This document shows, piece by piece, positions 24,804 to 54,786 of a stretch of DNA of 64,000 bases. Position 1 is the first letter of the stretch. Each line of letters begins with the position of its first letter. The notes beneath the pieces were generated by a model, which saw nothing but the letters and a program-made list of their open reading frames with translations, was not told where the DNA came from and made no database searches. Origin of the DNA: Allomyces arbusculus (taxonomy: Eukaryota > Blastocladiomycota > Blastocladiomycetes > Blastocladiales > Blastocladiaceae). The stretch covers positions 124,001-188,000 of the forward strand of contig JADHYV010000004.1 of assembly GCA_027604705.1 (NCBI GenBank). Reading direction: 5' to 3'. The translations under genes were made by a program, and so were the position numbers.

Positions 24804-25451
24804 ATTGCGAAGTGATTGATTTTTGATGTAGACGAAGATTGAACATGCTTCCTTGCGCGGTTTTCTATTTGGATGTCATAGGAGGTCGACACGGCCGCGT
24901 GGTCCAGTTCGAGTCTCAGTGGCCTCCTTGGGCCACAACCAGTCGATTCTGTCGTCCCAGGAAGTTTGATGAGAACGACGTCGAGAATTCAGATCAGATG
25001 CGTCTCCATTCTCCGCCCGGTTTTGCTTGTCGTGGTGGTCGAAATGAAAGAGTGCGGCGGTTGTCGTGTCGGGCGTTCGTCCAGGCGAAATCAGTGAAGT
25101 CGGAGACACAGGCGAAAGACACGTGACCGCGTCTTCCCACCGCCCGCCGTCGAGCCGGTCTCCCTCCATCTCCCTCTCCACCCTTGACAGCCACGCCGAT
25201 GGGAAACCATGCCGTCCCCCACTCGCAGTTTCGAGACTTCCGGCTGCCGCGAGCACGCGCTCCGGTCGCACGATTCGGGCACGCGGTTTGGCATGGGAAC
25301 CTCGCCGCGAGCACGCGCGACGCGCCAACATGTCGACCAACCGCCCGACCGAAAGACCGACCGGCGCCTATAAAGCCGGTGCGCACGCGCGCAGCCGCGC
25401 TCTCCCTCGACAACGACCACCGCGTTCCCTGCCGAGTACCCGTTACGCATC
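24804..25451. other. Promoter region of first secreted-family gene
   Basis: About 650 bp after the ABCC stop. No gene is supported. The last 90 bp hold a TATA box followed by a pyrimidine-rich leader and the start of the secreted-family copy A. Confidence 0.55.
25369..25375 (+). promoter_or_regulatory. TATA box of copy A
   Basis: TATAAAG in the context GGCGCCTATAAAGCC, 77 bp upstream of the ATG at 25452. Similar boxes stand before the other family copies, which supports a functional role. Confidence 0.6.
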
Positions 25452-27136
25452 ATGAAGTACCCGACGCTGCTCCTCGCGACCGCTGCGGCGGCGCTCGCCG
25501 TGGTCGCGACCACCGCCGACGCGCAGCAGATCGTCGGCAATGTTCCCGCAACCACGGCCACCACGACGGGCACGACAGCGCCGCCCCACCTGACGGTCGT
25601 GCACACGGCCAAGCCCAAGCGCAAGCGCACAAAGGGCGGGATCAAGGCGTGGACGGCCGAGATGCAGGCGGCTCTCAAGAAGAAGCGCGTTGGCGCGCGC
25701 GTCAGCACGAAAGTTAAGGGTGGCAAGCCGATCAAGAAGACCAAGTCGAAACTATCGGCGGCGGCACGCAAAGCGCGCAAGGCGCGGCACGCCAAGAAGG
25801 TCAAAGCGCTCAAGCAGAAGATGAGCAAGTTGCCTGTGGGTCACCCGGACCGGAAGAAGCTCGCGCTGAAGCTCAAGAAGCTCCGACTCAAGTCCAAGAA
25901 GGCGAACAAGAAGCCCAAGGCCAAGACGGCGGCGCGTACGTGGTGTTTGGTTTTGGGTCGGCTATGCGCGTGCGAAACCAGTTTAGCGAAACTGACGGAC
26001 CGTTCTCTGCTCCGCTAGTCATGTCGACGGCTGCAGCCCCTGGCGCGCACAAGACGCACGCGCACTCGTCGCCTGCCGGACTCGTGCCGTTTGTCGACCC
26101 GCCCTTCCCCGCCGCGATCCAGCACGGCGCCGACGGGTCGGTCCGTCTCGTGCGCAAGGGCCTCACGGCTGGTCATGGCGTGATCCACAAGTACGGCTTC
26201 CAGACGGCCAAGCCGCTCGCGATCCCTGCCGGGACCAAGTACGTGACGTTCCTGGCCAAGATCAAGGCGCAGGCCAAGAAGCCCGTGCAGCGCAACCTCA
26301 AGAAACAGACCGGCAAGACCTTGGCGCGCCCGAGCTCGGCGCCGGTGTGCCGCAAGTCTGACACGGCCATCACCGTCTTCCACGGCGGCAAGCCCCTCGG
26401 CGGGCTGCGGTTCCCCAAGGGGTCGCACGGCAGCAGCAAGTACGAGACGCTGCGTCTGCGCGTGCCCGTCTCCAAGCTGTCGCACACGTCAGCGCCGATC
26501 ACGCTGCAGGCCGCGCACGACCACGCGTCAGCGTCCAAGTGCATGGACCACTCGATCCTGCAGATCAAGGGGTTCAAGGTGCAGTTCCACGACACGCTGC
26601 CCGTGCGCAAGCCCAAGACGGCTGCCGCCGGTGCCAAGGCCAAGTTCTCGGTGTCCGAGTCGGGATACGACTACGCGTCGTTTGACGACTCGTGGGACGA
26701 GTCGTACGATGACATGTGGGAGGACAACTACGATGGCGACTTCTCGGTTTCCGAGGACGCGGCGTACGAGGGCGACGACATGTGGGAGGACAACTATGAC
26801 GAGGGCTTCTCGGTCTCGGAGGACGCGGCCTACGACGGCGACGACATGTGGGAGGACAACTACGATGGCGACTTCGCGGTCGCTGACGAGGCCGGTCCGG
26901 CCGACAATGTCGATGACGAGGCCGAGGACGCCTACGACGGCGGCGATTTCTCGGTTTCTGAGGACGCGTATGGCGGCGACGACCTGTGGGACGATGCGTA
27001 CGACGGCGAGGGCTATTCGGTCGAGGGCGACGCGGACGCCGAGGATGAGGATCAATGGGATGACGGGTACGATGGCGAGGGCTTTTCGACGGCCGAGGAC
27101 GCCTGGGAGTGGCCGTCATGGTGGCCCTTCAAGTAG
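25452..27136 (+). CDS. Secreted-family protein copy A: signal peptide, Lys/Arg-rich region, core domain, acidic repeat tail
   Basis: Two exons, 25452-25935 and 26019-27136, with an 83-nt intron (GTACGT donor, CGCTAG acceptor); 533 residues. Residues 1-24 (MKYPTLLLATAAAALAVVAT) are a clear signal peptide. Residues 50-160 are extremely Lys/Arg-rich (RKRTKGG, KARKARHAKKVKALKQKM). The core domain spans about 175-370: GADGSVRLVRKG, HKYGFQTAKPLAIPAGTKYV, a Cys in APVCRKSD, and KCMDHSILQIKGFKVQFHD. Residues 380-525 are Asp/Glu/Gly-rich repeats built on DDMWEDNYDGDFSVSEDA. Copies B-D downstream lack the long basic region. I recognise no known family. The opposite charges at the two ends suggest self-assembly or binding to a charged wall polymer; this is speculation. 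Confidence 0.8.
26640..27125 (+). repeat. Acidic D/E/G-Y/W repeat tail, about 6 degenerate units
   Basis: Within copy A, a unit of about 22-24 codons with the cores DDMWEDNYDGDFSVSED and YDGEGFS recurs about six times. The first three units are nearly identical at the protein level, later ones are more diverged. It encodes a highly negative tail with regularly spaced aromatic residues. Confidence 0.8.
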
Positions 27137-27514
27137 ACACGCGGCACGGTTTCGATCGCGTCGGTGCGTCGAGTTGGGCGCCCAGAGTGGTGTGGGGGCT
27201 GATCGGGGATTGACGAGTGCGTGTTCACGATGGGTCAGCTGGTCTGGCCCATTCGCGCACTGTGGGCTGAGCGAGCGAGGAAAACTATTTCGTAGTTGAA
27301 CAATGAGTTGTTTCATTTCTTGTTTAATTTTGAGCGAGTGTTGGACACGGCGACGGTCGTCCCACAGCATTGCCGCGCGATCCAGCTCGTTCTGTGGGTC
27401 GTTTCACGCCAGAGCGCGACAGGTCCGGCCGGAGATCAGCACTGCATCAGTCAAGTGCCGGGCTCCTTCAAAGCCAAGGTGCGGGAGACCACGGGAGACC
27501 GTCAGCGCATCAGC

Positions 27515-27527
27515 GCATCAGCGGAGC
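27515..27527 (+). promoter_or_regulatory. Shared upstream element of the secreted family
   Basis: GCATCAGCGGAGC. The same 13-mer occurs at 30480-30492 before copy D, and GCACCAGCGGAGC at 29107-29119 before copy C. It lies 64-120 bp upstream of each TATA box. It could be a transcription-factor site or simply shared ancestry of the duplicated flanks. Confidence 0.45.
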
Positions 27528-27590
27528 ACCGCACTCTCAGTTGGCGCGGGGATCCGCACTCTGCATCGTCGTGTCACACGTGGTGGCCGG

Positions 27591-27597
27591 TATAAAT
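27591..27597 (+). promoter_or_regulatory. TATA box of copy B
   Basis: TATAAAT in the context GGCCGGTATAAATG, about 200 bp upstream of the ATG at 27791. The flanking GGCC(A/G)G is shared with copies C and E. Confidence 0.6.
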
Positions 27598-27790
27598 GTC
27601 GGACGCGCCCTCGCCGCGCTTCTCTCTTCTGCACTGACCTGCGCACCCCGACCAGAGTCCTGACCCGCTGCCGCGAGCCCTGATCCTACCACCACACGCC
27701 CTGATCCCTCCACCACGCGCCCTGATCCCGCCACCACGCGCCTGGCCTCCTCGACCGTTCCCGGTTCTCTTCGACGGCCAATTCGCGACG

Positions 27791-28594
27791 ATGAACAAGC
27801 TCGCGACGCTCTTCTTCCTCCTCATTTCCGCCGTCGCCGTCGCCGTGATGCTCGCGCCCGCAGCGCGCGGTGCTATCGCATAAGCTGCCGTGCCTATCCC
27901 CGACAAGACGATCTACCCGAGCCTCGACGTGTTTTCCGAGCCGGCGATCCCCATGACTGTGTCACGCGACGCCGACGGGTCGATGCGGCTCGTGCGCAAG
28001 GGCACGACGGTGCCGGACGGCCGCACGCACATGTTTGGGTTCCGCACGGTCGGCACGCTCCCGATCCCGGCGGGCATCAAATCGGTGACCATGTCAGTTA
28101 CGTTTGCCGTGGCCTCGGCGCCGGCGTCGCCGGCGTACATGTCGCGCAACGTGCGGATTCCCGGCACGTGCGTGATCCAGTCGACCTACAAGGAGCTCGG
28201 CGACTATTTCCACTTGTTCGCGCGCCGCGCGCCGACCTACGGTGATTACGGGTCTCTCGCCAAGGAAGAAACGTTCCGCATCACGGTACCGTCGCGCGAT
28301 ATTGGGTACCAGATCATGCCGACGCTGCTCAAGGTGTTCCACCAGTACCAGTCCAACTATGGGCTATCGTGCGTCGTCTCGGCAACGGTCGTCGTCAAGG
28401 AGTTCAAGATCATTTTCCACGCGACCGAGCAGCCCATGTGGTATGGCAAGCTCATGGCCTTGGGGGACACGGGACGCGCGGTCGACGACGATGATGATGA
28501 TGGCGACGAGGACACGTTTGACGAGTACGGCGGAGCGTACTCGCTCGTCGACGAAGCGTTTGGCGAGGACGAGTATGTGGGCTACGACGAGTAG
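27791..28594 (+). pseudogene. Secreted-family copy B, in-frame stop after signal peptide
   Basis: Starts MNKLATLFFLLISAVAVAVM, almost identical to copy D, giving a good signal peptide. At 27881-27883 the frame has TAA where copy D has CAA (Gln), directly after the signal peptide region. Downstream the frame is then fully open for more than 230 codons: DADGSMRLVRKG, HMFGFRTVGTLPIPAG, RIPGTCVIQSTYKEL, APTYGDYGSLA, VVVKEFKIIFHATEQP, and the acidic tail DTFDEYGGAYSLVDEAFGED. So either this is a very young pseudogene, or the stop is bypassed or is an assembly error. No intron is seen that would remove it. The core domain keeps the family motifs, unlike the older relics near 42 kb. Confidence 0.7.
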
Positions 28595-29349
28595 GTCGGC
28601 GCAGTCAGGATTCTCGTCGTCGAGGGCGTGCGGCCCTGATTTGTCGCGAGGTGCTTTCCGCGGCCATAGTCGTTGTTGTGCAGGTCGCGCGGGTGCGGCA
28701 GGCTAGATACCGCCACCGATACCAGTAGTTTGTTGATTGCTGTTGTGATCGGAGAGAAAAAAGCGGGGGGCATTTCTGTTGTGGCATACCTGCATATATT
28801 CATCGCAGTCTACATTCGTGCTTAAAGGCCGTGGTTGCGTCTTGAACAAGGGAATTTCTGTCGAAATGTCGACCTAGTCTATCCGCAGGACTGCAGCCAA
28901 GAACAAGCTCGCGCTTCCCACTCCAAGCAAGTGAGGAGACTTATTTCGTAGTTGAGCAATGAAACGATATATTTTCTTGTTCGAGCGAGCGCAGGAAGCG
29001 AGCCGTATTTATGCGGCAACCCTTTTCAGAGCACGAGACGTCGAGCTGCTGCACTCCTGCCTCCATCAAGCCGAGGTGCGGAAGATCGTGGGGGTCCACC
29101 AGCACCGCACCAGCGGAGCGATGGGCTCAGGCACCCAGGTCGCGCAGCGCTGCGCACTCCGCTCCAGCGCCAAACGCGGCGGCCAGTATAAATCTCGGTT
29201 GCCCCCTCGTCGCGCTCCCTTCCACTACACGAGCCCGCTTGCCGACCCAACGACCAGAGTTCTGATCTGATCACCATCACGCACTCGGACCAAAACGTGC
29301 CCGACCCTTTCGACCGCGTCCTGCTCTCGCCAACGGTCGCTTTGCGCCC
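28595..29349. promoter_or_regulatory. Intergenic and promoter region of copy C
   Basis: About 750 bp without a supported gene. The first part (to about 28810) is the 3' flank of copy B and resembles the 3' flank of copy D (GTGGCATACCT(G/C)CATA). The second part has the TTTCGTAGTTGAGCAATGAA segment shared with the copy B upstream region, element GCACCAGCGGAGC and a TATA box at 29187. Confidence 0.55.
29187..29193 (+). promoter_or_regulatory. TATA box of copy C
   Basis: TATAAAT in the context GGCCAGTATAAATC, 163 bp upstream of the ATG at 29350, matching the copy B box base for base apart from one flanking position. Confidence 0.6.
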
Positions 29350-30159
29350 ATGAGCAAGCCTGCAACGCTCGTGCTCCTCCTCTCGGCCGTTGCCGTCGCG
29401 GTGATGCTCGCGCCCTCTGTGCCAGTCACTGCCACGCGGGCCATGGCGCCTGTGCCCGAGAAAATCATCTACCCGAAGCTCTACGCGTTTTCCGACCCGC
29501 GGTTTGTGCCCATGCCCATGGACGTGACGCGCGATGCCGACGGGTCGATACGGCTCGTGCGCAAATGCCTGACGATCTCATGGGGCCAGATGCACATGTT
29601 TGGACTTAGCACGTCAGCGTACCCGATCCCGATCCCCACGGGCGTCAAGTCGGTGACAATCTCGGTCACGTTTGCCGTAGAGCAGGCACCCATCTCGCCC
29701 GCCTACATGGCGCGCAGCATTCGGATTCCCGGGACGTGCGCGATCCAGATGACCTACAAGGAACTCGGCGACACTTCCCGGATGTTCGCGCGCCGCGCTC
29801 CGACCTACGGCGACTATGGGTCGCTTGCGCAGATGGAATCGTTCCGTGTCACGGTGCCGGCGCGCGACCTCGGGTCTCATGTGCCGCCAATGATGCTCAA
29901 GGTGTTTCACCGGATCCAGCCGAACAACAAGGTGAGATGCATCGACGTTACGACGGTCGTCGTCAAAGAGTTCAAGATCATTTTCCACTCGACCGAGCAG
30001 CCCGCGTGGTACGGCAAGCTCATGGCCATGGGGGACACGGGTCGCGCATTCGACAACGACGACGAGGATGCGGAGGACTCGTTTGACGATCAGTTTGGTG
30101 GCGCGTACTTCCTCGCCGACGAGGCGTCTGGTGACGACGAGTACCCTGACTACGAGTAG
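29350..30159 (+). CDS. Secreted-family protein copy C
   Basis: One exon, 269 residues. Residues 1-28 (MSKPATLVLLLSAVAVAVML) form a signal peptide. The core domain keeps DADGSIRLVRK, GQMHMFGLST, GVKSVTISVTFAV, RIPGTCAIQMTYKELGD, FARRAPTYGDYGSLAQME, RVTVPARDLGSHVP, CIDVTTVVVKEFKIIFHSTE and QPAWYGKLMAMGDTG. The tail (about residues 235-269) is Asp/Glu-rich, ending GDDEYPDYE. Two Cys (in GTC and RCID) are shared with copies B and D and may form a disulfide. An extra Cys is present in VRKCLTIS. The family is unrecognised. It is likely exported through the ER; final location is unknown. Confidence 0.8.
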   Translation: MSKPATLVLLLSAVAVAVMLAPSVPVTATRAMAPVPEKIIYPKLYAFSDPRFVPMPMDVTRDADGSIRLVRKCLTISWGQMHMFGLSTSAYPIPIPTGVKSVTISVTFAVEQAPISPAYMARSIRIPGTCAIQMTYKELGDTSRMFARRAPTYGDYGSLAQMESFRVTVPARDLGSHVPPMMLKVFHRIQPNNKVRCIDVTTVVVKEFKIIFHSTEQPAWYGKLMAMGDTGRAFDNDDEDAEDSFDDQFGGAYFLADEASGDDEYPDYE

Positions 30160-30786
30160 GTCGGCGTGGTCGAGCTCTCGGTCGTTGAGGACGTCGCGTG
30201 GATTTCATATGACGCGACATGTCGCGGTCGTTCATGTCGTTGCTGTGCAAGGCGTGCAGGAGCGGGAAGCGAGGTACCACCGTAGATTTCGGCAGTTTGT
30301 TGATTGTTGTTGTGATTCGGCCGAGAGCAAGCGCATTTCTACTGAACAAACATCAATTTATCGCACGTTAAAAATTATCGCACAGACATGAATTTGTCTT
30401 CATGTCGAATGAATCCAGCATGTCAAGCAACCTCGACCATTGCAGCCTCCACACTGTGGGGCAGCGGGAGACCTCTCGCGCATCAGCGGAGCGCCCGGCT
30501 CCCACAAACTCCCACCTGCTTCACGGGAGACCATCACTGCATCAGCAGAGTGGGGTTCCCAGCTGGCGCGCCGATCGCACACTGCTCTCCAGCGCCACGC
30601 ACCGTGTCCGGTTTAAAAGTCGACCGCACCCTTGATGCGCTTCCTTCTTCCGCACGACCCGTCGCGCTCTGACCCGACCACCACGCACCCTACTCCATCG
30701 CCGCACACTCGACCCATCCAGGACCGCCACGGGCCCGAACCGACCGACCGACCGTTTTTGCTCTCTTCGACGGCCAATTCGCGACG
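30160..30786. promoter_or_regulatory. Intergenic and promoter region of copy D
   Basis: About 630 bp, no supported gene. It has the GCATCAGCGGAGC element at 30480-30492 and a variant TATA box at 30612. The 60 bp before the ATG (CTCTCTTCGACGGCCAATTC and on) are nearly identical to the copy B leader, evidence of duplication that included the 5' leader. Confidence 0.55.
30612..30618 (+). promoter_or_regulatory. Variant TATA box of copy D
   Basis: TTTAAAA in the context GTCCGGTTTAAAAGTC, 169 bp upstream of the ATG at 30787, at the same relative position as the TATAAAT of copy C. Confidence 0.5.
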
Positions 30787-31632
30787 ATGAACAAGCTCGC
30801 GACGCTCGTCTTCCTCCTCATTTCGGCCGTCGCCGTCGCCGTGATGCTCGCGCCTGCGGCGCGCGGTGCGATCGGGCAAGCTGCCGCGCCCGCGCCCGAC
30901 AAGACGATCTACCCGAAGCTCTACACGACTTCCGACCCGTACAAGCCCGTGGACGTGATGTACGACGGGGACGGGTCGATGCGGGTCGTGCGCGGGCCCC
31001 TGATCACGATCCCGTTTGGTCAAACAAACATGATTGGGTTCCGCACGTACCCAGTCCCGATTTCCGCGGGCACCAAGTCGGTGACCATCTCCGTCACGTT
31101 TGCCGTCTCGGGGGCGCCCGTGTCGCCGGCCTACCGGCTGCCCGGCACGTGCGTGCTCCAGGCGGCCTCCAAGGAATTACTCAGCGGCGAATCTCAGATG
31201 CTCGCGCGACGTGCGCCAACGTATGGCGATCAAGGGCCGCGGGCAATGGAATCGTTCCGCGTGACGGTGCCGGCGCGCGACTTTGGGTCCCATGTGCCGC
31301 AGTTGCTGCTCAAGGTGTTTTACCAGCACCAGCCGAACAAGAAGTCGTGCCGCGACCTGACGACGGTCGTGGCCAAGGAGTTCAAGATCATTTTCCACTC
31401 GACCGAGCAGCCCGCGTGGTATGGCAAGCTCATGGCCATGGGGGACACGGGCCACGCGGTCAGCGAGGATGACTTTGACGACGAGGATACGTTTGACGAG
31501 TACGGCGGAGCGTACTCGCTCGTCGACGAGGCGTTTGGTGACGACGAGGATACGTTTGACGAGTACGGCGGAGCGCACTCGCTCGTCGACGAGGCGTTTG
31601 GTGACGACGAGTACGTGGGCTACGAAGAGTAG
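30787..31632 (+). CDS. Secreted-family protein copy D with duplicated acidic tail
   Basis: One exon, 281 residues. Signal peptide MNKLATLVFLLISAVAVAVM, near-identical to copy B. Core domain: DGDGSMRVVRG, TNMIGFRTYPVPISAGTKSV, RLPGTCVLQAASKEL, LARRAPTYGDQGP, VTVPARDFGSHVPQLL, SCRDLTTVVAKEFKIIFHST and EQPAWYGKLMAMGDTG. The tail holds two nearly identical 21-residue blocks (DTFDEYGGAYSLVDEAFGDDE) in tandem. This is the best-preserved copy and the reference for judging the stop in copy B. The tandem arrangement with copies B and C on the same strand, each with shared flanks, shows segmental duplication. Function unknown. Confidence 0.82.
   Translation: MNKLATLVFLLISAVAVAVMLAPAARGAIGQAAAPAPDKTIYPKLYTTSDPYKPVDVMYDGDGSMRVVRGPLITIPFGQTNMIGFRTYPVPISAGTKSVTISVTFAVSGAPVSPAYRLPGTCVLQAASKELLSGESQMLARRAPTYGDQGPRAMESFRVTVPARDFGSHVPQLLLKVFYQHQPNKKSCRDLTTVVAKEFKIIFHSTEQPAWYGKLMAMGDTGHAVSEDDFDDEDTFDEYGGAYSLVDEAFGDDEDTFDEYGGAHSLVDEAFGDDEYVGYEE
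31488..31613 (+). repeat. 63-bp tandem duplication in copy D tail
   Basis: Two adjacent 63-bp units (GAGGATACGTTTGACGAGTA and on) differ at a single position that I can see (TAC versus CAC, Tyr to His). The frame is kept, adding 21 acidic residues. The near identity marks a very recent event. Confidence 0.85.
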
Positions 31633-32539
31633 TGCGCGGTTGGGTGTTTGATCGCTGAGGATGGGCGGCTTTGATTTGACGCGACATGTGTTTTTTGTTC
31701 GCTGTTGTTGGTGTGCAGGTCGCGCGGCCCGCGACAAGCGTGATATCGCCACAGATACTAGCAGTGTTGATTCTCGTTGTGATTGGAGAGAAAGAGTGGG
31801 CGCATTTCTTTGTGGCATACCTCCATAAATTCATCGCAGTCCATCGTCGTGCGCAATGGCCGCGTATTCTTGCGGCTAGATGAGGGGATGCCCTGCACGT
31901 TGCGAAATCCCGCTCGTCAGCAGCGACACCTGCTCATGAGCATTGGCCGTGAGACCAATGCGGACCCGCGATGATGGTACCGGGTCCCGGGCAGATCTGA
32001 TGTCGCGTGTGGTCGCGTCGACGCTGTTATCCGAGCTCGTGTCACTCAGAGCTCTGACGTGGACTGGTCGCGGAGGTCGAAATAGCGTCGCGGCCCTCTG
32101 CGCTCTTCACCACCATCGACCACAGACCACCCGGCCAGCAGGTGGCCGCGCGACGCGTGCTTGGTTGCTGAGCAGGCGGCCGTACGCTCCAGCGCTCCCA
32201 CGCTCTCCATCTTAACGCCGTTTTTTAATCCAGCCAAACATCGCGCGCCTCTCGCTGCCCGACCAAGATCAATTCAGCGCAACCACACGCTCAGCGCCCT
32301 GCACGCGTCGCGACGTTCTCCAGCTCTGTTGGCCAGTATTAATTGCTGCCCTAGATCTGCGCTGTGCTCCTCCTCTGCGATACTGGCACCTCGAATCTGT
32401 TTTCGCAAGTACGGTCTCGCACGCTCTCCCCACTGAACCGCCGTGGCTCACTCGACGTGCCATATGACGCACAATCGTGACACGCGCGCTCACCCGATTT
32501 GCTTGCTCATGCACCATAGCGGCCCGCACGCCCACCACT
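31633..32539. promoter_or_regulatory. Intergenic region before copy E
   Basis: About 900 bp, no supported gene. The first 200 bp resemble the copy B 3' flank (GTGATTGGAGAGAAA, GTGGCATACCTCCATAAA). A TATTAAT at 32337-32343 in the context GGCCAGTATTAAT is the degenerate counterpart of the TATA boxes of copies B and C. Confidence 0.5.
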
Positions 32540-33495
32540 ATGAACAAGCTCCCGTTGTTCCTCAGCCATCACCAGCATGCTGACAGTCGCAACTGGGGCC
32601 AAGCACGTGCAGGTCATGGTGGCTTCCCCCCAACACAACCAGCTGATATTCCCCAAGGTGGTGCCATTCTCGGACACTGGCGCCGACGATCTGGTCACGC
32701 AGACCGCTGATGGGTCGGTCATTCTTGTCCGTCGTTCTGTGATCACGATTCTGAAATGTTGGGCAAACAGGAGGTGCGTATGGCTTCACCATGAATGGGC
32801 CGGACTTCAGGATCCTGAGCTGGGCGCACTTCATGACGATCGCGGCCAAGATTACAGTGTTCAAAAAAATGCTGGGCAACGAGCTGAAGCCTGGGTTGCT
32901 GCATGTGTCTGAATGCACAATCTCCAAGTGCCGGATCAATCTCACAGCCGACTCTGATCTACCACTTGCCATGCAAACCACTGGCTCGTGCATGTCCATG
33001 TTTGGGTTGTCGTTGGGTCCGTCTGAGACTGTGACGCTCAAGGGCATGAGGGCGCTATTTGTCTTCGAAGACAAGGCTTTCTGCCCCACGATCCGTGTTG
33101 CGAACAGCTATGCTCGTGACAATTTCTGGTCCACCTCAGGTTGGTGCGTGGACCTTTCGAGCCTGCAGCTCAAGGATCTCAAGGTCGTGTTCTCCGAGAA
33201 GTTGCCGGTGTTTTCCTTGGCTTTTGCGCTGGCTGATGTGGATTTGGCTGAGATCGGCGATGAGGACGAGTACAAGTATGATGACTTGGCACGGTTCTCG
33301 ATTGCCGAGGACGTGTGGGTCTCAGTCGCGTGTGCCAGGTGCGTCATGATCGGCCAGCACAGGTGGGCCAGCAAGTTGTGCTGGGTCGTACTGTCACGTG
33401 CGCGTCGATTTGGGTTGTGTGGTATCGTCGATGTGCGCGTGCGCTCCGCGACTGGCGCAGAGTTCATGTGGTGTGCTTCGTTGCCAGTGCCGTGA
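32540..33495 (+). pseudogene. Diverged secreted-family copy E
   Basis: An ATG at 32540 gives MNKLPLFLSHHQHAD, the remains of the family start, but the open frame shifts within the first 60 bp and again near 32765, where the family-like GAYGFTMNGPDF is out of frame with TADGSVILVRRS before it. From 32791 to about 33330 the frame is open and family-like: LSWAHFMTIAAKITV, two Cys (SECTISKC), and WCVDLSSLQLKDLKVVFSEK aligning with the Cys-Lys-Phe motif of other copies. The acidic tail is short (DEDEYKYDDLARFSIAED). Either small introns repair the breaks or, more likely, this is a decayed copy. It has more Cys and Met and is less GC-rich than copies A-D. Confidence 0.6.
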
Positions 33496-33977
33496 TAGCG
33501 TGGGCTATTGGCGTTGCCAGGGCAAATAGTTTCCTCGCATTGATTCGTTAGCCAAATACCCCCCCCCCCCCACCCCCCGTTTACAATTCATTAATGCTCT
33601 TGGACTCGCGTCGTGCTACACGTCGTCAGCCATTTCGCCCTGATAATTTCACCAGCGCGCGCACGGTGCCGCGGAGCGACGGACCATGGTCGTGCCCCGT
33701 CAAAGCACGGTCGAAGAATGCACGACGTCAGGAACAAGATCTGTGACCAACGGTGACCAACGTTTCGGAGCTCATGAACGAGGCACGTGGATCTGACGCA
33801 GACAGTCGTTTGACCATCGTCGCCGGCCGTTGATCGCTTCTCTCAACTTACCGCCCAGCACCAACTCCATCCTCGACACCACCACGGCTGGGAACTCGCT
33901 GCATTGGTCCGCATTGGGATCTTGACGTTGCTGCTAAATTACTTTGCCGCCAACCGCGCTTGGTCTTCTCGTTCATC
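33496..33977. other. Intergenic region with poly-C tract
   Basis: About 480 bp between copy E and the SREK1-like gene. It contains a run of about 12 C, one A and then six C at 33559-33578. No gene is supported. Confidence 0.55.
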
Positions 33978-35006
33978 ATGGCGTCTGCCATTGTCAAGGT
34001 CGGTCGAGTCGAGTCGCCCAAGTGATCCAATCAATCGCACCAGCAAATTCACCACCTATCATCGCAATGTCATGGAATTAGGTTTCCAATGTCAGCCAAT
34101 TTGTCGAGGAGGACAAGCTACGCAAGCTGTTTGCGCACCTCGGTGAGATCAAGTCGCTCGCGCTGAAATCGTCGGTACCCTCTGCTGCTGGTTCTCGCGT
34201 TGTCGCTCAAGTGCAAAGCTGACCAGTCTATTCTTCCGCACGTTCCGCATCCTCTCCATCAGATCCGGGCACGAATGCACCATCGAGTACGTCAAGCCGG
34301 GCGACGCGCTGCTGGCCTTGCAACTTGATGGTGAGCCCTTTTACGACCGCGCGCTAGCCGTCGAGCCGCTACCAGCGCCCCTTGACGAGGATCAACTCGC
34401 ACGAATTGCGCGGACGGCGCGCATCGACAATGTCCCGGCATCCGTCACACTCGAGCAGTTGAGGCAAGTGTTTGCACAAGCCGACGGCGTGCGGCGCATG
34501 CGGCTCGGTAACGGCACCGACGAAACGACGGGGCTCGGATACGCCTACGTCGAGTTCACGTCGTCCGAGTACCAGAAACGCGCGCTCACGAAGCTGGATG
34601 GGATGGCGGTCGAGGGGGAACGGCTCAAGTACGCTCCGTTCAGACTTTCCTGCGACTTGCATCGTCCATTGCTGACCATTCACTGGATTTAACCAGGCTC
34701 TCTCCCTCGCGCATCGCCATTTCCAAGGGCAAGGCACCTCGCCCACCGACCGACGAACCCAAATCCATCCAGTCGCCGCGGCCCCGCGCGCCATCGCACG
34801 ACCGTCGCACACGGTCGCGGTCCCGGTCGCGGTCGCGCGGACATATTCGTGACCGCCTGCGCAGTCCCGACGCACCACCGCGCCACGACGACGATTCCCG
34901 TCGCTCCGGTGCGACGCGGCGCCGGTCGCGGTCGCCACGGTCGCCTGCGGGCGGGTACGAGGACGACCGCGAGTACGAGCGGTCGAAGCGGTCGAGGAAG
35001 TATTGA
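33978..35006 (+). CDS. SREK1-like SR-related splicing regulator, two RRMs and RS tail
   Basis: Four exons. Exon 1 33978-33998 (MASAIVK), exon 2 from 34082, exon 3 to about 34629, exon 4 34690-35006; the intron between exons 2 and 3 (about 34175-34273) has uncertain edges. RRM1: VSNVSQFVEEDKLRKLFAHL, then YVKPGDALLALQLDGEPFYD, RALAVEP. RRM2: ARIDNVPASVTLEQLRQVF, TGLGYAYVEFTSSEYQKRAL. The C-terminus is an RS domain (RSRSRSRSRGH, RRRSRSPRSPAG). The spacing, and the DRAL(A)VEP ending of RRM1, resemble SREK1/SRSF11-type proteins that modulate splice-site choice in the nucleus. Assignment to that subgroup is moderate; RRM plus RS is certain. Confidence 0.78.
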
Positions 35007-41422: not shown

Positions 41423-42603
41423 ATGACCAAGGACGAGGTCGAGGACTACAAGCTTCTGGCCAAGGACAAGAATCTCGAGCGCAGGGCCGATTCGGTGCCG
41501 AATAATAGCCCGCTGCGTGCTAAGCTTGAGGGGCAGATGGTCTTCATTCGCGGCCTGCGAACATACAGGGCATGCACAGGGACTGATACCGCAAGTTCCG
41601 CAAGCAGCTGCAGAAGAAGAAGCAGGCGATGGGCGCGGTGGTCAGGAAGCGGGAGCAGACGGAGAAGCGGGAGCGGCAGGAATTGGCGCGGCAGCAGCGG
41701 CAGGCGCGTATGCTCAAGCAGCGGCGGCAGGCGGCTAGAAACCGCCAGAACCGAGGGCCGAATCTTACGTTTTCACGGCCATGTTTTGCATTGTAAGCCC
41801 TGCATCTCTTTGGTTTGTCCTCGTCGTGACCTCACCGCCGTTACCCACGCGTTTTCTAGGTCAGGTCACCCAAATTTGGACGCCCAGCCCGACTTGCACG
41901 CATCCCAGCGACCTGACCCCGTTCTCAGACTTGGTCTTGCCCATGTCGATGCAAGCGCACCTTGACGGGTCCGTTCGGCTCGCGCGCGACGGCGAGACGG
42001 GTCGGGTCCGGTATCACGCACAAGTACGGGCTCCAGACTGTAAAGCCGGTCGAGATCCCGTCGAACGCCAAGTACGTGACATTTAGTGCGCAGGGGTGCA
42101 CACAAGAGCCCAGGTTTCGCCGCCCCCGAAGAAGGGCCAGGTCACGCTCGCTCCGTTGTCGACGGCGTACCCGCTCTACCGCTCGCTCAACAAGGTGGTG
42201 CGGCTCATGTACGGCCCGCGAGAGATTGCGCGGCAGGCCTACACGCGCGGGTCCGCGGGCACGCGCGGCGGCGCGTTTGACCAGATCCGCATGACGATCC
42301 CCTTGATGTCGCTGCGCGCGACGACCAGTACCCGCTCTCATCGAAGTCACTCACGACCACACGTCCGAGGACATGTGCCGCGATGACTCGTTCCTGCAGG
42401 TCAAGAACGTGCAGGCTTTGTTCTTCCGGGAGGGGCCAACCGTGCGTGATATTCCGCGGGTCAACTCGATGGGTGCCGATAACGCCGGGTTCTCGTTCGT
42501 GTCGGGATATGACTACGACGCCGATGACGGCGAGAGCGACGTGTTTGACCACGGCCTCGATTTTTCGGTGGACGAGGATGCCGATGAGGGCGACGACCAG
42601 TGA
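41423..42603 (+). pseudogene. Decayed copy F of the secreted family
   Basis: Pieces in several frames follow the order of copy A. At 41590-41795 a Lys/Arg/Gln-rich segment (YRKFRKQLQKKKQAMG, RKREQTEKRERQELARQQ) matches its basic region. At 41960-42085 come LDGSVRLARDG and, in another frame, THKYGLQTVKPVEIPSNAKY, aligning with HKYGFQTAKPLAIPAGTKY of copy A. At 42373-42603 come MCRDDSFLQVKNVQALFF and the acidic tail GYDYDADDGESDVFDHGLDF. No signal peptide was found, and the frame is broken at several places. This is a fossil of a copy A-type gene lying 15 kb from the main array, beyond four housekeeping genes. Confidence 0.65.
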
Positions 42604-43587: not shown

Positions 43588-44104
43588 GTGCCAATGATCC
43601 GCATTTACGAGCAACAGGCGCGGGCCGAACGGGCCAGGATTGAACGCCTCAAGGAGCGTGTGCTGGTTGAGCGCGCCAGGATGGAGGCAAAGGTTGCCCA
43701 GGACCGGGAGCTGCATGCAGCGGCCGAACGTGCGAGGATTGAGAACATGATGGAGGCCCGCAACAAGCAGAGGATGTGATCACGGCCATCATTTCGCCCA
43801 TCTTGCCTGGAGATCCGCGACTGACGTTGGCTCGATCCGCCTCCTGACCAGCGGGCACGACCAAGGTGTCGCTCTCGGACGGCGACGAATATGAGTCGTT
43901 TGACGACGAATATGACGGCGGCGATTACTCGGTCTCCGAGGGCACGGCCTACGGCGGCGACGGCATGTGGGAGGACATGTACGATGGCGACTTTTCGGCC
44001 GAGGATTCGTACGACGAAGTCACAGCGGTTGATAACGAGTATTACGTGGTGATTTCTCGGCCGAGGACTCGTATGACGAGAATGCGGCCATCGACGAGTA
44101 CTAG
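43588..44104 (+). pseudogene. Decayed copy G of the secreted family (tail and coiled coil only)
   Basis: A 64-codon frame gives a charged helix (QARAERARIERLKERVLVER, then HAAAERARIENMMEARNKQ), followed from 43860 by an acidic tail (SFDDEYDGGDYSVSEGTAY, then MWEDMYDGDFSAEDSYDE) that matches the copy A repeat. The last unit (GDFSAEDSYDENAAIDEY) is in a shifted frame. The core domain is missing. So this is a truncated and frame-shifted relic; the coiled coil may correspond to the basic segment of copy A. Confidence 0.55.
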
Positions 44105-53487: not shown

Positions 53488-54786
53488 ATGATGCGCGGTG
53501 GTCGTGGCGGCTTTGGCGGCGGTGGCCGCGGTGGTGGTCGTGGTATGCCATTCTCGTCAATCTCGCACGCTCGTGCATCGCCGACTCGCTCAATGGCAAC
53601 AACCCAGCAACGATCAATGGCTCAACTGACCCTTCCCATTGTACCGTCATGAACAGGTGGCGGTGCCCCGCGCGGTGGTCGTGGCGGTGGTCGTGGTTCG
53701 TACCTTTCTGCACCCTTGCTCGCCATCCCCATCTCGACCAGACCCCTGACCTAAACTCCTTTCATCATTCTAGGTGGTTTCGGCGGCGGTGACCGTGGTG
53801 GCTTCTCGGGCGGCCGCGGTGGCGGTCGTGGCGGTTTTGGCGGCGGTCGCGGCGGCTTCGGTGCTCGCGGCGGCGGTGTTGCCAAGCGCGGCGGTCCCGG
53901 CGGCCGTGGTGGCGGTCGTGGTGCTCCTCGCGGCGGTGCTCGTGGCGGTCGTGGCGGTCGCGGTGGTGCCAGGGGGGGTGCCGCGGGCGGTGCCAAGGTC
54001 GTCATTGAGCCGCACCGTCACGAGGGTGTCTTTGTCGCGCGCGGCAAGGAGGACTTGCTCGTGACCAAGTCGCTCGTGCCCGGCGACGCCGTCTACGGCG
54101 AGAAGCGCATTTCGGTCGATGGGCCGGACGGCACCAAGACCGAGTACCGCGTGTGGAACCCGTTCCGGTCCAAGTTGGCCGCTGGTATCCTCGGCGGTGT
54201 CGACAAGATCCACATTGCCCCCGGCAAGAAGGTCCTCTACCTCGGTGCCTCGGCCGGTACCACTGTGTCCCACGTTGCCGGTACGTTGCCCTGCAGCGCT
54301 TTCGTCGTTGTCGTCATGGCCACCCGCCTCACCGTTCTCCTTTCATCTATCCCAGACATTGTCGGCGAAAACGGTCTCGTCTACGCCGTCGAATTCTCGC
54401 ACCGCATGGGTCGCGAGCTGATCAACGCGGCCAAGAAGCGCACCAACATCATTCCGATTATCGAGGACGCGCGTCACCCGCACAAGTACCGCATGCTCGT
54501 GTCAATGGTCGATGTCGTCTTTGCCGATGTTGCGCAGCCCGACCAGGCGCGTATCATCGCCCTGAACGCGCACCACTTCCTCAAGAACGGCGGCCACATT
54601 GTTATTTCGATCAAGGCCAACTGCATTGACTCGACCATCGACGCCGCCACGGTCTTTGCGCGCGAGGTCAAGAAGCTCCAGGAGGAGAAGATCAAGCCGC
54701 AGGAACAGCTCACGCTCGAGCCGTACGAGCGCGACCACGCGCTCGTCGTTGGCGTCTACCGCCCGCCGCCCAAGAGCAAGAAGTAG
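53488..54786 (+). CDS. NOP1: Fibrillarin, box C/D snoRNP 2'-O-methyltransferase
   Basis: Four exons: 53488-53542, 53657-53695, 53774-54280 and 54356-54786, with introns of 114, 78 and 75 nt. The first two introns fall inside the GAR domain, each after the same codon phase. The N-terminal 80 residues are Gly/Arg/Phe repeats. The methyltransferase domain: [55 protein letters not shown] (SAM-binding loop), [33 protein letters not shown] and [13 protein letters not shown]. Fibrillarin 2'-O-methylates rRNA guided by C/D snoRNAs in the nucleolus. Start at the first of two adjacent ATGs. Confidence 0.96.

What the first reader, a model, noticed from the sequence alone, without database searches (positions are those of the whole stretch)
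25452..33495. Tandem array of an unrecognised secreted protein family with acidic tails
Five genes in a row on the + strand (copies A-E) share a core domain that I cannot place in any known family. Seen directly: signal peptides in A-D, D-G-S-x-R-L-V-R near the N-terminus, a GF/GL-x-T and KSVTI strand pair, and strongly negative tails with spaced aromatic residues. Copy A adds a 110-residue Lys/Arg block. Everything around the array is housekeeping. Inference: a lineage-specific extracellular or wall protein family, possibly self-associating through opposite charges, that expands by local duplication.
Basis: partly seen in the sequence, partly recalled or inferred. Interest (0 to 1): 0.85.

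Follow-up and report, generated by a model that had tools for sequence, protein, structure and literature searches.

The report
Charged secreted protein family in Allomyces
An aquatic fungus carries clusters of apparently secreted proteins, found so far only in its own genus, that combine a positively charged piece, a folded piece resembling sugar-binding modules and a negatively charged tail, and the folded piece has been copied between genes while the front piece has not.

Summary
The array is real; the window lies in Allomyces arbusculus (Blastocladiomycota). Copies A, C and D are intact; B has an in-frame stop after its signal peptide; E is broken in two places. By my grouping of hit tables the genome holds 16 loci plus two relics, on two contigs. 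Named homologues come only from A. arbusculus, A. macrogynus and A. javanicus. No credible Pfam, NCBIfam or PDB sequence match was found.

The main new result: the exons evolve separately. Front exons follow the locus across species, while cores are nearly identical among different loci within a species; an 814-bp tract at 98.6% identity links copy A to a gene 65 kb away. I infer a wall or extracellular glycan-binding scaffold with associating charged blocks. Expression, ligand and assembly are untested.

The parts
25369..25374 (+). TATAAA 83 nt upstream of copy A's ATG
   Evidence: 3 of the 5 TATAAA on the + strand of the window lie 83-200 nt upstream of A, B and C
25452..25935 (+). Copy A exon 1: signal-like N-terminus and Lys/Arg-rich module (+42 over 161 aa) with predicted helical hairpin (residues 103-126 and 132-152)
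25936..26018 (+). Copy A intron, phase 1, GT..AG, 83 nt, between basic module and core
   Evidence: phase 1 in 5 of 5 arbusculus genes modelled
26019..27136 (+). Copy A exon 2: core (protein residues about 176-355) and acidic aromatic tail (-61 over 163 aa)
26069..26882 (+). Tract 98.6% identical (814 bp, 11 mismatches) to the inverted gene at C4:215-217 kb; unrelated flanks
27591..27596 (+). TATAAA 200 nt upstream of copy B's ATG
27791..28594 (+). Copy B: signal-like N-terminus, in-frame TAA at 27881-27883, then core and short acidic tail
29187..29192 (+). TATAAA 163 nt upstream of copy C's ATG
29350..30159 (+). Copy C, intact, 269 aa: signal-like N-terminus, core, short acidic tail
30787..31632 (+). 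Copy D, intact, 281 aa; core residues about 34-207 predicted as beta sandwich; no basic module
32541..33495 (+). Copy E, degenerate: family similarity in pieces in different frames
41904..42600 (+). Relic of a family core, split over frames with stops
43743..44045 (+). Relic with an acidic-tail match

Best explanation
A family of secreted modular proteins, known only from Allomyces, that acts as a glycan-binding scaffold in the wall or extracellular matrix. SHOWN from sequence: signal-like N-terminus; in the two-exon type a Lys/Arg-rich front exon; a conserved core with two invariant cysteines; an acidic aromatic tail almost without Lys/Arg; exchange of core sequence between loci. PREDICTED: the core is a beta-sandwich jelly roll like carbohydrate-binding modules, and the basic exon holds a helical hairpin. 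INFERRED: the core binds a wall polysaccharide; basic modules pair with acidic tails of their own or of C/D-type proteins, which lack the basic module, so that the proteins cross-link; the locus-specific front modules set partner or time of use; ectopic gene conversion keeps the cores alike.
For: Conservation and dN/dS 0.15-0.48 among close copies. Two models, of D and of A, give the same core; by the titles 24 of 50 listed structural matches for D and 45 of 50 for A are glycan-binding or glycan-active proteins (11 of the 45 are GH12 catalytic domains and many rows are repeats of one protein). Front block +14 to +63 in 20 of 21 proteins compared, tails -30 to -74 in all 21, net charge of the whole protein only -23 to +27. 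Core exchange.
Confidence: 0.45

Rival explanations
1. Precursors of cationic peptides: the basic exon is released by cleavage at dibasic sites and acts on microbes or membranes, while the acidic tail neutralises it until release.
For: The front exon is strongly basic with an amphipathic-looking helical hairpin, varies between loci, and contains KR/RR pairs. P0025-P0029 consist of basic module and tail only.
Against: Most members keep a large folded core; C, D and AMAG_02482 have no basic module at all; KR/RR pairs are expected in any Lys/Arg-rich stretch; no expression or processing data.
Confidence: 0.12
2. Variable surface proteins: exchange of cores and front exons between loci creates new combinations, for example against parasites of Allomyces such as Rozella.
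For: Discordant histories of the two exons; pair GGF32_006772/006773 with front exons 82% and cores 36% identical. A review names Rozella allomycis as endoparasite of Allomyces (PMC6690862, passages).
Against: Conversion here mostly makes cores alike, the opposite of diversification; core dN/dS among close copies is below 0.5; no population data.
Confidence: 0.1
3. The discordance between exons is an artefact: front exons drift fast and the proteins are plain whole-gene duplicates.
For: Lys-rich sequence drifts and aligns poorly; some core groupings are not recovered as clades.
Against: Front exons of one type stay 80-90% identical across species, while ten within-species pairs with cores 92-100% identical have front exons only 22-46% identical. 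AU tests reject the groups in both directions. DNA identity falls sharply at both tract ends.
Confidence: 0.05
4. Intracellular proteins whose hydrophobic N-terminus is not a working signal peptide, for example nucleic-acid-binding or chaperone-like proteins.
For: The Lys/Arg exon resembles histone-like tails by eye; no N-glycosylation sequon in A, C or D; no localisation data.
Against: Hydrophobic N-terminal stretches in the two-exon proteins and in B, C and D; two invariant core cysteines, as expected of secreted proteins.
Confidence: 0.1

Closest known systems
AMAG_02481, AMAG_02482, AMAG_02483 and other hypothetical proteins of Allomyces macrogynus; GGF32 proteins of A. javanicus
   Same: Same family: same modules and high identity
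   Different: Uncharacterised; AMAG_02481 is only 126 aa
Beta-sandwich carbohydrate-binding modules (CBM27, CBM4, CBM15, CBM16, CBM22, CBM28)
   Different: 3-12% identity; no CBM family hit in Pfam; not attached to an enzyme; ligand unknown
MAM domains, Eph receptor ligand-binding domains, birnavirus VP2
   Same: Same jelly-roll class, scores tied or nearly tied with CBMs
   Different: No sequence relationship; different biological roles
Oppositely charged secreted proteins of marine cements (recalled, not looked up)
   Same: Strongly basic and strongly acidic blocks in secreted proteins
   Different: Here both blocks lie in one chain around a folded domain; assembly not shown; no homology tested

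Membership tests
Carbohydrate-binding module (beta-sandwich CBM) | Beta-sandwich jelly-roll fold | tested here: met
Carbohydrate-binding module (beta-sandwich CBM) | Sequence match to a described CBM family | tested here: not met
   0 Pfam families for 14 of 14 core sequences at E 10; no CBM among weak rows for 23 members; no CBM among PDB sequence matches at E 10
Carbohydrate-binding module (beta-sandwich CBM) | Aromatic or polar ligand site on the sandwich face or loops | not testable with these tools
   Coordinates of the models are not readable here
Carbohydrate-binding module (beta-sandwich CBM) | Binding to a polysaccharide | not testable with these tools
   Needs purified protein
Allomyces core family (this report) | Core with invariant G84, T87, C122, G150, P162, C188 (copy D numbering) | tested here: met
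   14 of 14 core sequences that I chose, one of them from the public B model; in the wider set P0019 has only one core Cys and P0025-P0029 have no core
Allomyces core family (this report) | Acidic tail | tested here: met
   A, B, C, D; E only partly
Allomyces core family (this report) | Secretion | not testable with these tools
   Signal-like N-termini seen by eye only

The most novel reading that the evidence does not exclude
A self-assembling extracellular material made of block-charged proteins: oppositely charged modules within one chain, and split between two-exon and C/D-type proteins, condense around glycan-bound jelly-roll cores. Front exons give each locus its own partner or time of use, while ectopic conversion of the core exon, bounded near the phase-1 intron, keeps members able to co-assemble. 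This would be a fungal wall or cement system for which I found no description.
Probability: 0.2. Interest if true: 0.75.

Novelty: new variant of a known kind. Interest (0 to 1): 0.5.

Why it matters
Wall and matrix proteins of Blastocladiomycota are little known; a 2019 review (passages seen) cites a single 1959 chemical analysis of the Allomyces wall. A family so far found only in one genus, with a recognisable type of fold and separable charged modules, gives a direct entry to what is specific about the Allomyces surface. It is also a clear natural case in which one exon of a gene family evolves in concert between loci while the other keeps its locus identity. A search for five of its public locus tags found no paper in the held library.

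Tried and rejected
Chance or non-coding sequence: rejected by relatives in three species, dN/dS and a shared intron position. Known family by sequence: Pfam, NCBIfam and PDB gave nothing credible. Weak Pfam rows for single sequences (for example LRR19-TM, a Kelch family, DUF5123, TryThrA_C at E 0.004) were set aside: DUF5123 matched 5 and DUF4407 3 of 23 members at best E 0.39 and 0.072, the others one member each. Charge matching between front exon and tail: not supported. Monophyly of the three arbusculus cores: not shown (held together the log-likelihood is 0.21 lower, p-AU 0.037); the four similar macrogynus cores of one contig are not a clade in the best tree but are not rejected (p 0.257). 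Hairpin profile against PDB: mainly designed or coiled-coil peptides and chance rows, E 0.088 or worse. Rfam and tRNA scans of the window: nothing. Papers: eight searches listed no study that by title or start of abstract concerns this family; only listings and abstract starts were seen, except passages of PMC7389562 and PMC6690862.

Full report
What is there. The window is part of an 845,780-base contig (C4:124001-188000) of a 25.9-Mb assembly. Copy A has two exons and an 83-nt GT..AG intron. Copies C and D are single open frames with signal-like N-termini. Copy B carries a TAA at codon 31; the public model is shorter by the five codons around it. Copy E can be read only in pieces. The A. macrogynus counterpart of B (AMAG_02481, P0030) does not show the stop but is only 126 residues long, so B may be weakly kept in both species; a sequencing error in B is not excluded.

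How big the family is. Searches of the own genome with single proteins show the window array (A-E), six loci at C4:206-219 kb and five at C19:315-328 kb, plus two relics in the window. That is 16 loci and two relics by my grouping of the hit tables; the tool calls such counts lower bounds. Several loci show stops inside the match. Hits on other contigs had E 0.3-0.74. In the protein database the copy D search gave 4 hits, the alignment search 25 (22 at E 0.001 or better) and the core-only search 6; every hit that bears a name is from A. arbusculus, A. macrogynus or A. javanicus, and the unnamed ones are the window's own.

Modules. The two-exon type has a signal-like N-terminus, a Lys/Arg-rich stretch that in most members holds a motif like L..KI..LP.GSPLR..YE..L, then core and tail. 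The intron is phase 1 and lies between basic module and core in 5 of 5 arbusculus genes modelled. Copies C and D and AMAG_02482 have no basic module. P0025-P0029 have basic module and tail but no core. For copy A the three blocks carry +42, +26 and -61, net +7. In the 21 proteins compared (8 of 29 left out) tails are 35-44% Asp/Glu and 13-22% aromatic, with 0 or 1 Lys/Arg in 20 of 21.

Exchange between loci. Among 18 two-exon proteins (151 pairs with enough columns) ten within-species pairs have cores 92-100% identical but front exons only 22-46% identical, for example AMAG_17954 and AMAG_02483 (core 100%, front 31%), AMAG_17727 and 17728 (99.5%, 32%), copy A and the C4:215 kb gene (96.5%, 45.5%). 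Front exons of one type are instead 80-90% identical across species. The reverse also occurs: GGF32_006772 and 006773 have front exons 82% and cores 36% identical. On 14 of the 18 rows, AU tests reject the three front-exon groups on the core (p 3e-5, 0.003, 0.001) and three core groups on the front exon (p 7.5e-71, 4.9e-8, 6.6e-41); the groups were named after a first tree, two of the three core groups are not clades in the best core tree, and one of those two (the three arbusculus cores) has p 0.037 when held together. On DNA, copy A and the inverted gene at C4:215-217 kb share 814 bp at 98.6%, starting inside exon 2 and ending in the tail repeats; outside it identity is mostly 35-70%, with 74-79% at the signal region. 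Copy A and C19:318 kb share 983 bp at 93.4%, starting inside the intron. Ectopic gene conversion, or copying of the exon, is the simplest cause; the direction is unknown.

Likely role. A signal-like N-terminus, a fold of the glycan-binding type and separate basic and acidic blocks fit a wall or matrix scaffold. The Allomyces wall is reported to contain chitin and a glucan (PMC7389562, passages). TATA boxes lie upstream of A, B and C (3 of the 5 TATAAA on the + strand in 64 kb), while D and E have only TTTAAA and TATTAA, and 1 of 4 other family genes checked has TATAAA; this would suit regulated genes but is weak evidence. Expression, location, ligand and assembly remain to be shown.

Verdict. 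The core is an orphan by sequence with a known type of fold. The modular charge design and the split history of the two exons are the features a specialist would not expect.

Noticed in passing
window 41904-42600 and 43743-44045: Two degenerate relics of the same family, one core-like and one tail-like, about 10 kb downstream of the array.
   Followed up: partly
window 32900-35000 (GGF31_005655, P0024): Public gene model that joins the end of degenerate copy E to an RRM protein gene; probably an annotation error.
   Followed up: partly
window 27881-27883 (GGF31_005652, P0003): Public model of copy B is shorter by five codons around the in-frame stop, which would need a 15-nt intron; probably an annotation device.
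   Followed up: partly
P0026 (A. macrogynus), P0027 and P0028 (A. javanicus): Coreless relatives with two copies of the LPVGSPLR hairpin motif, about 85-87 residues apart.
   Followed up: no
window 53809-53966: Tandem repeat with a 21/42-base unit that would read Gly/Arg-rich if translated on the + strand; not checked whether it is coding.
   Followed up: no
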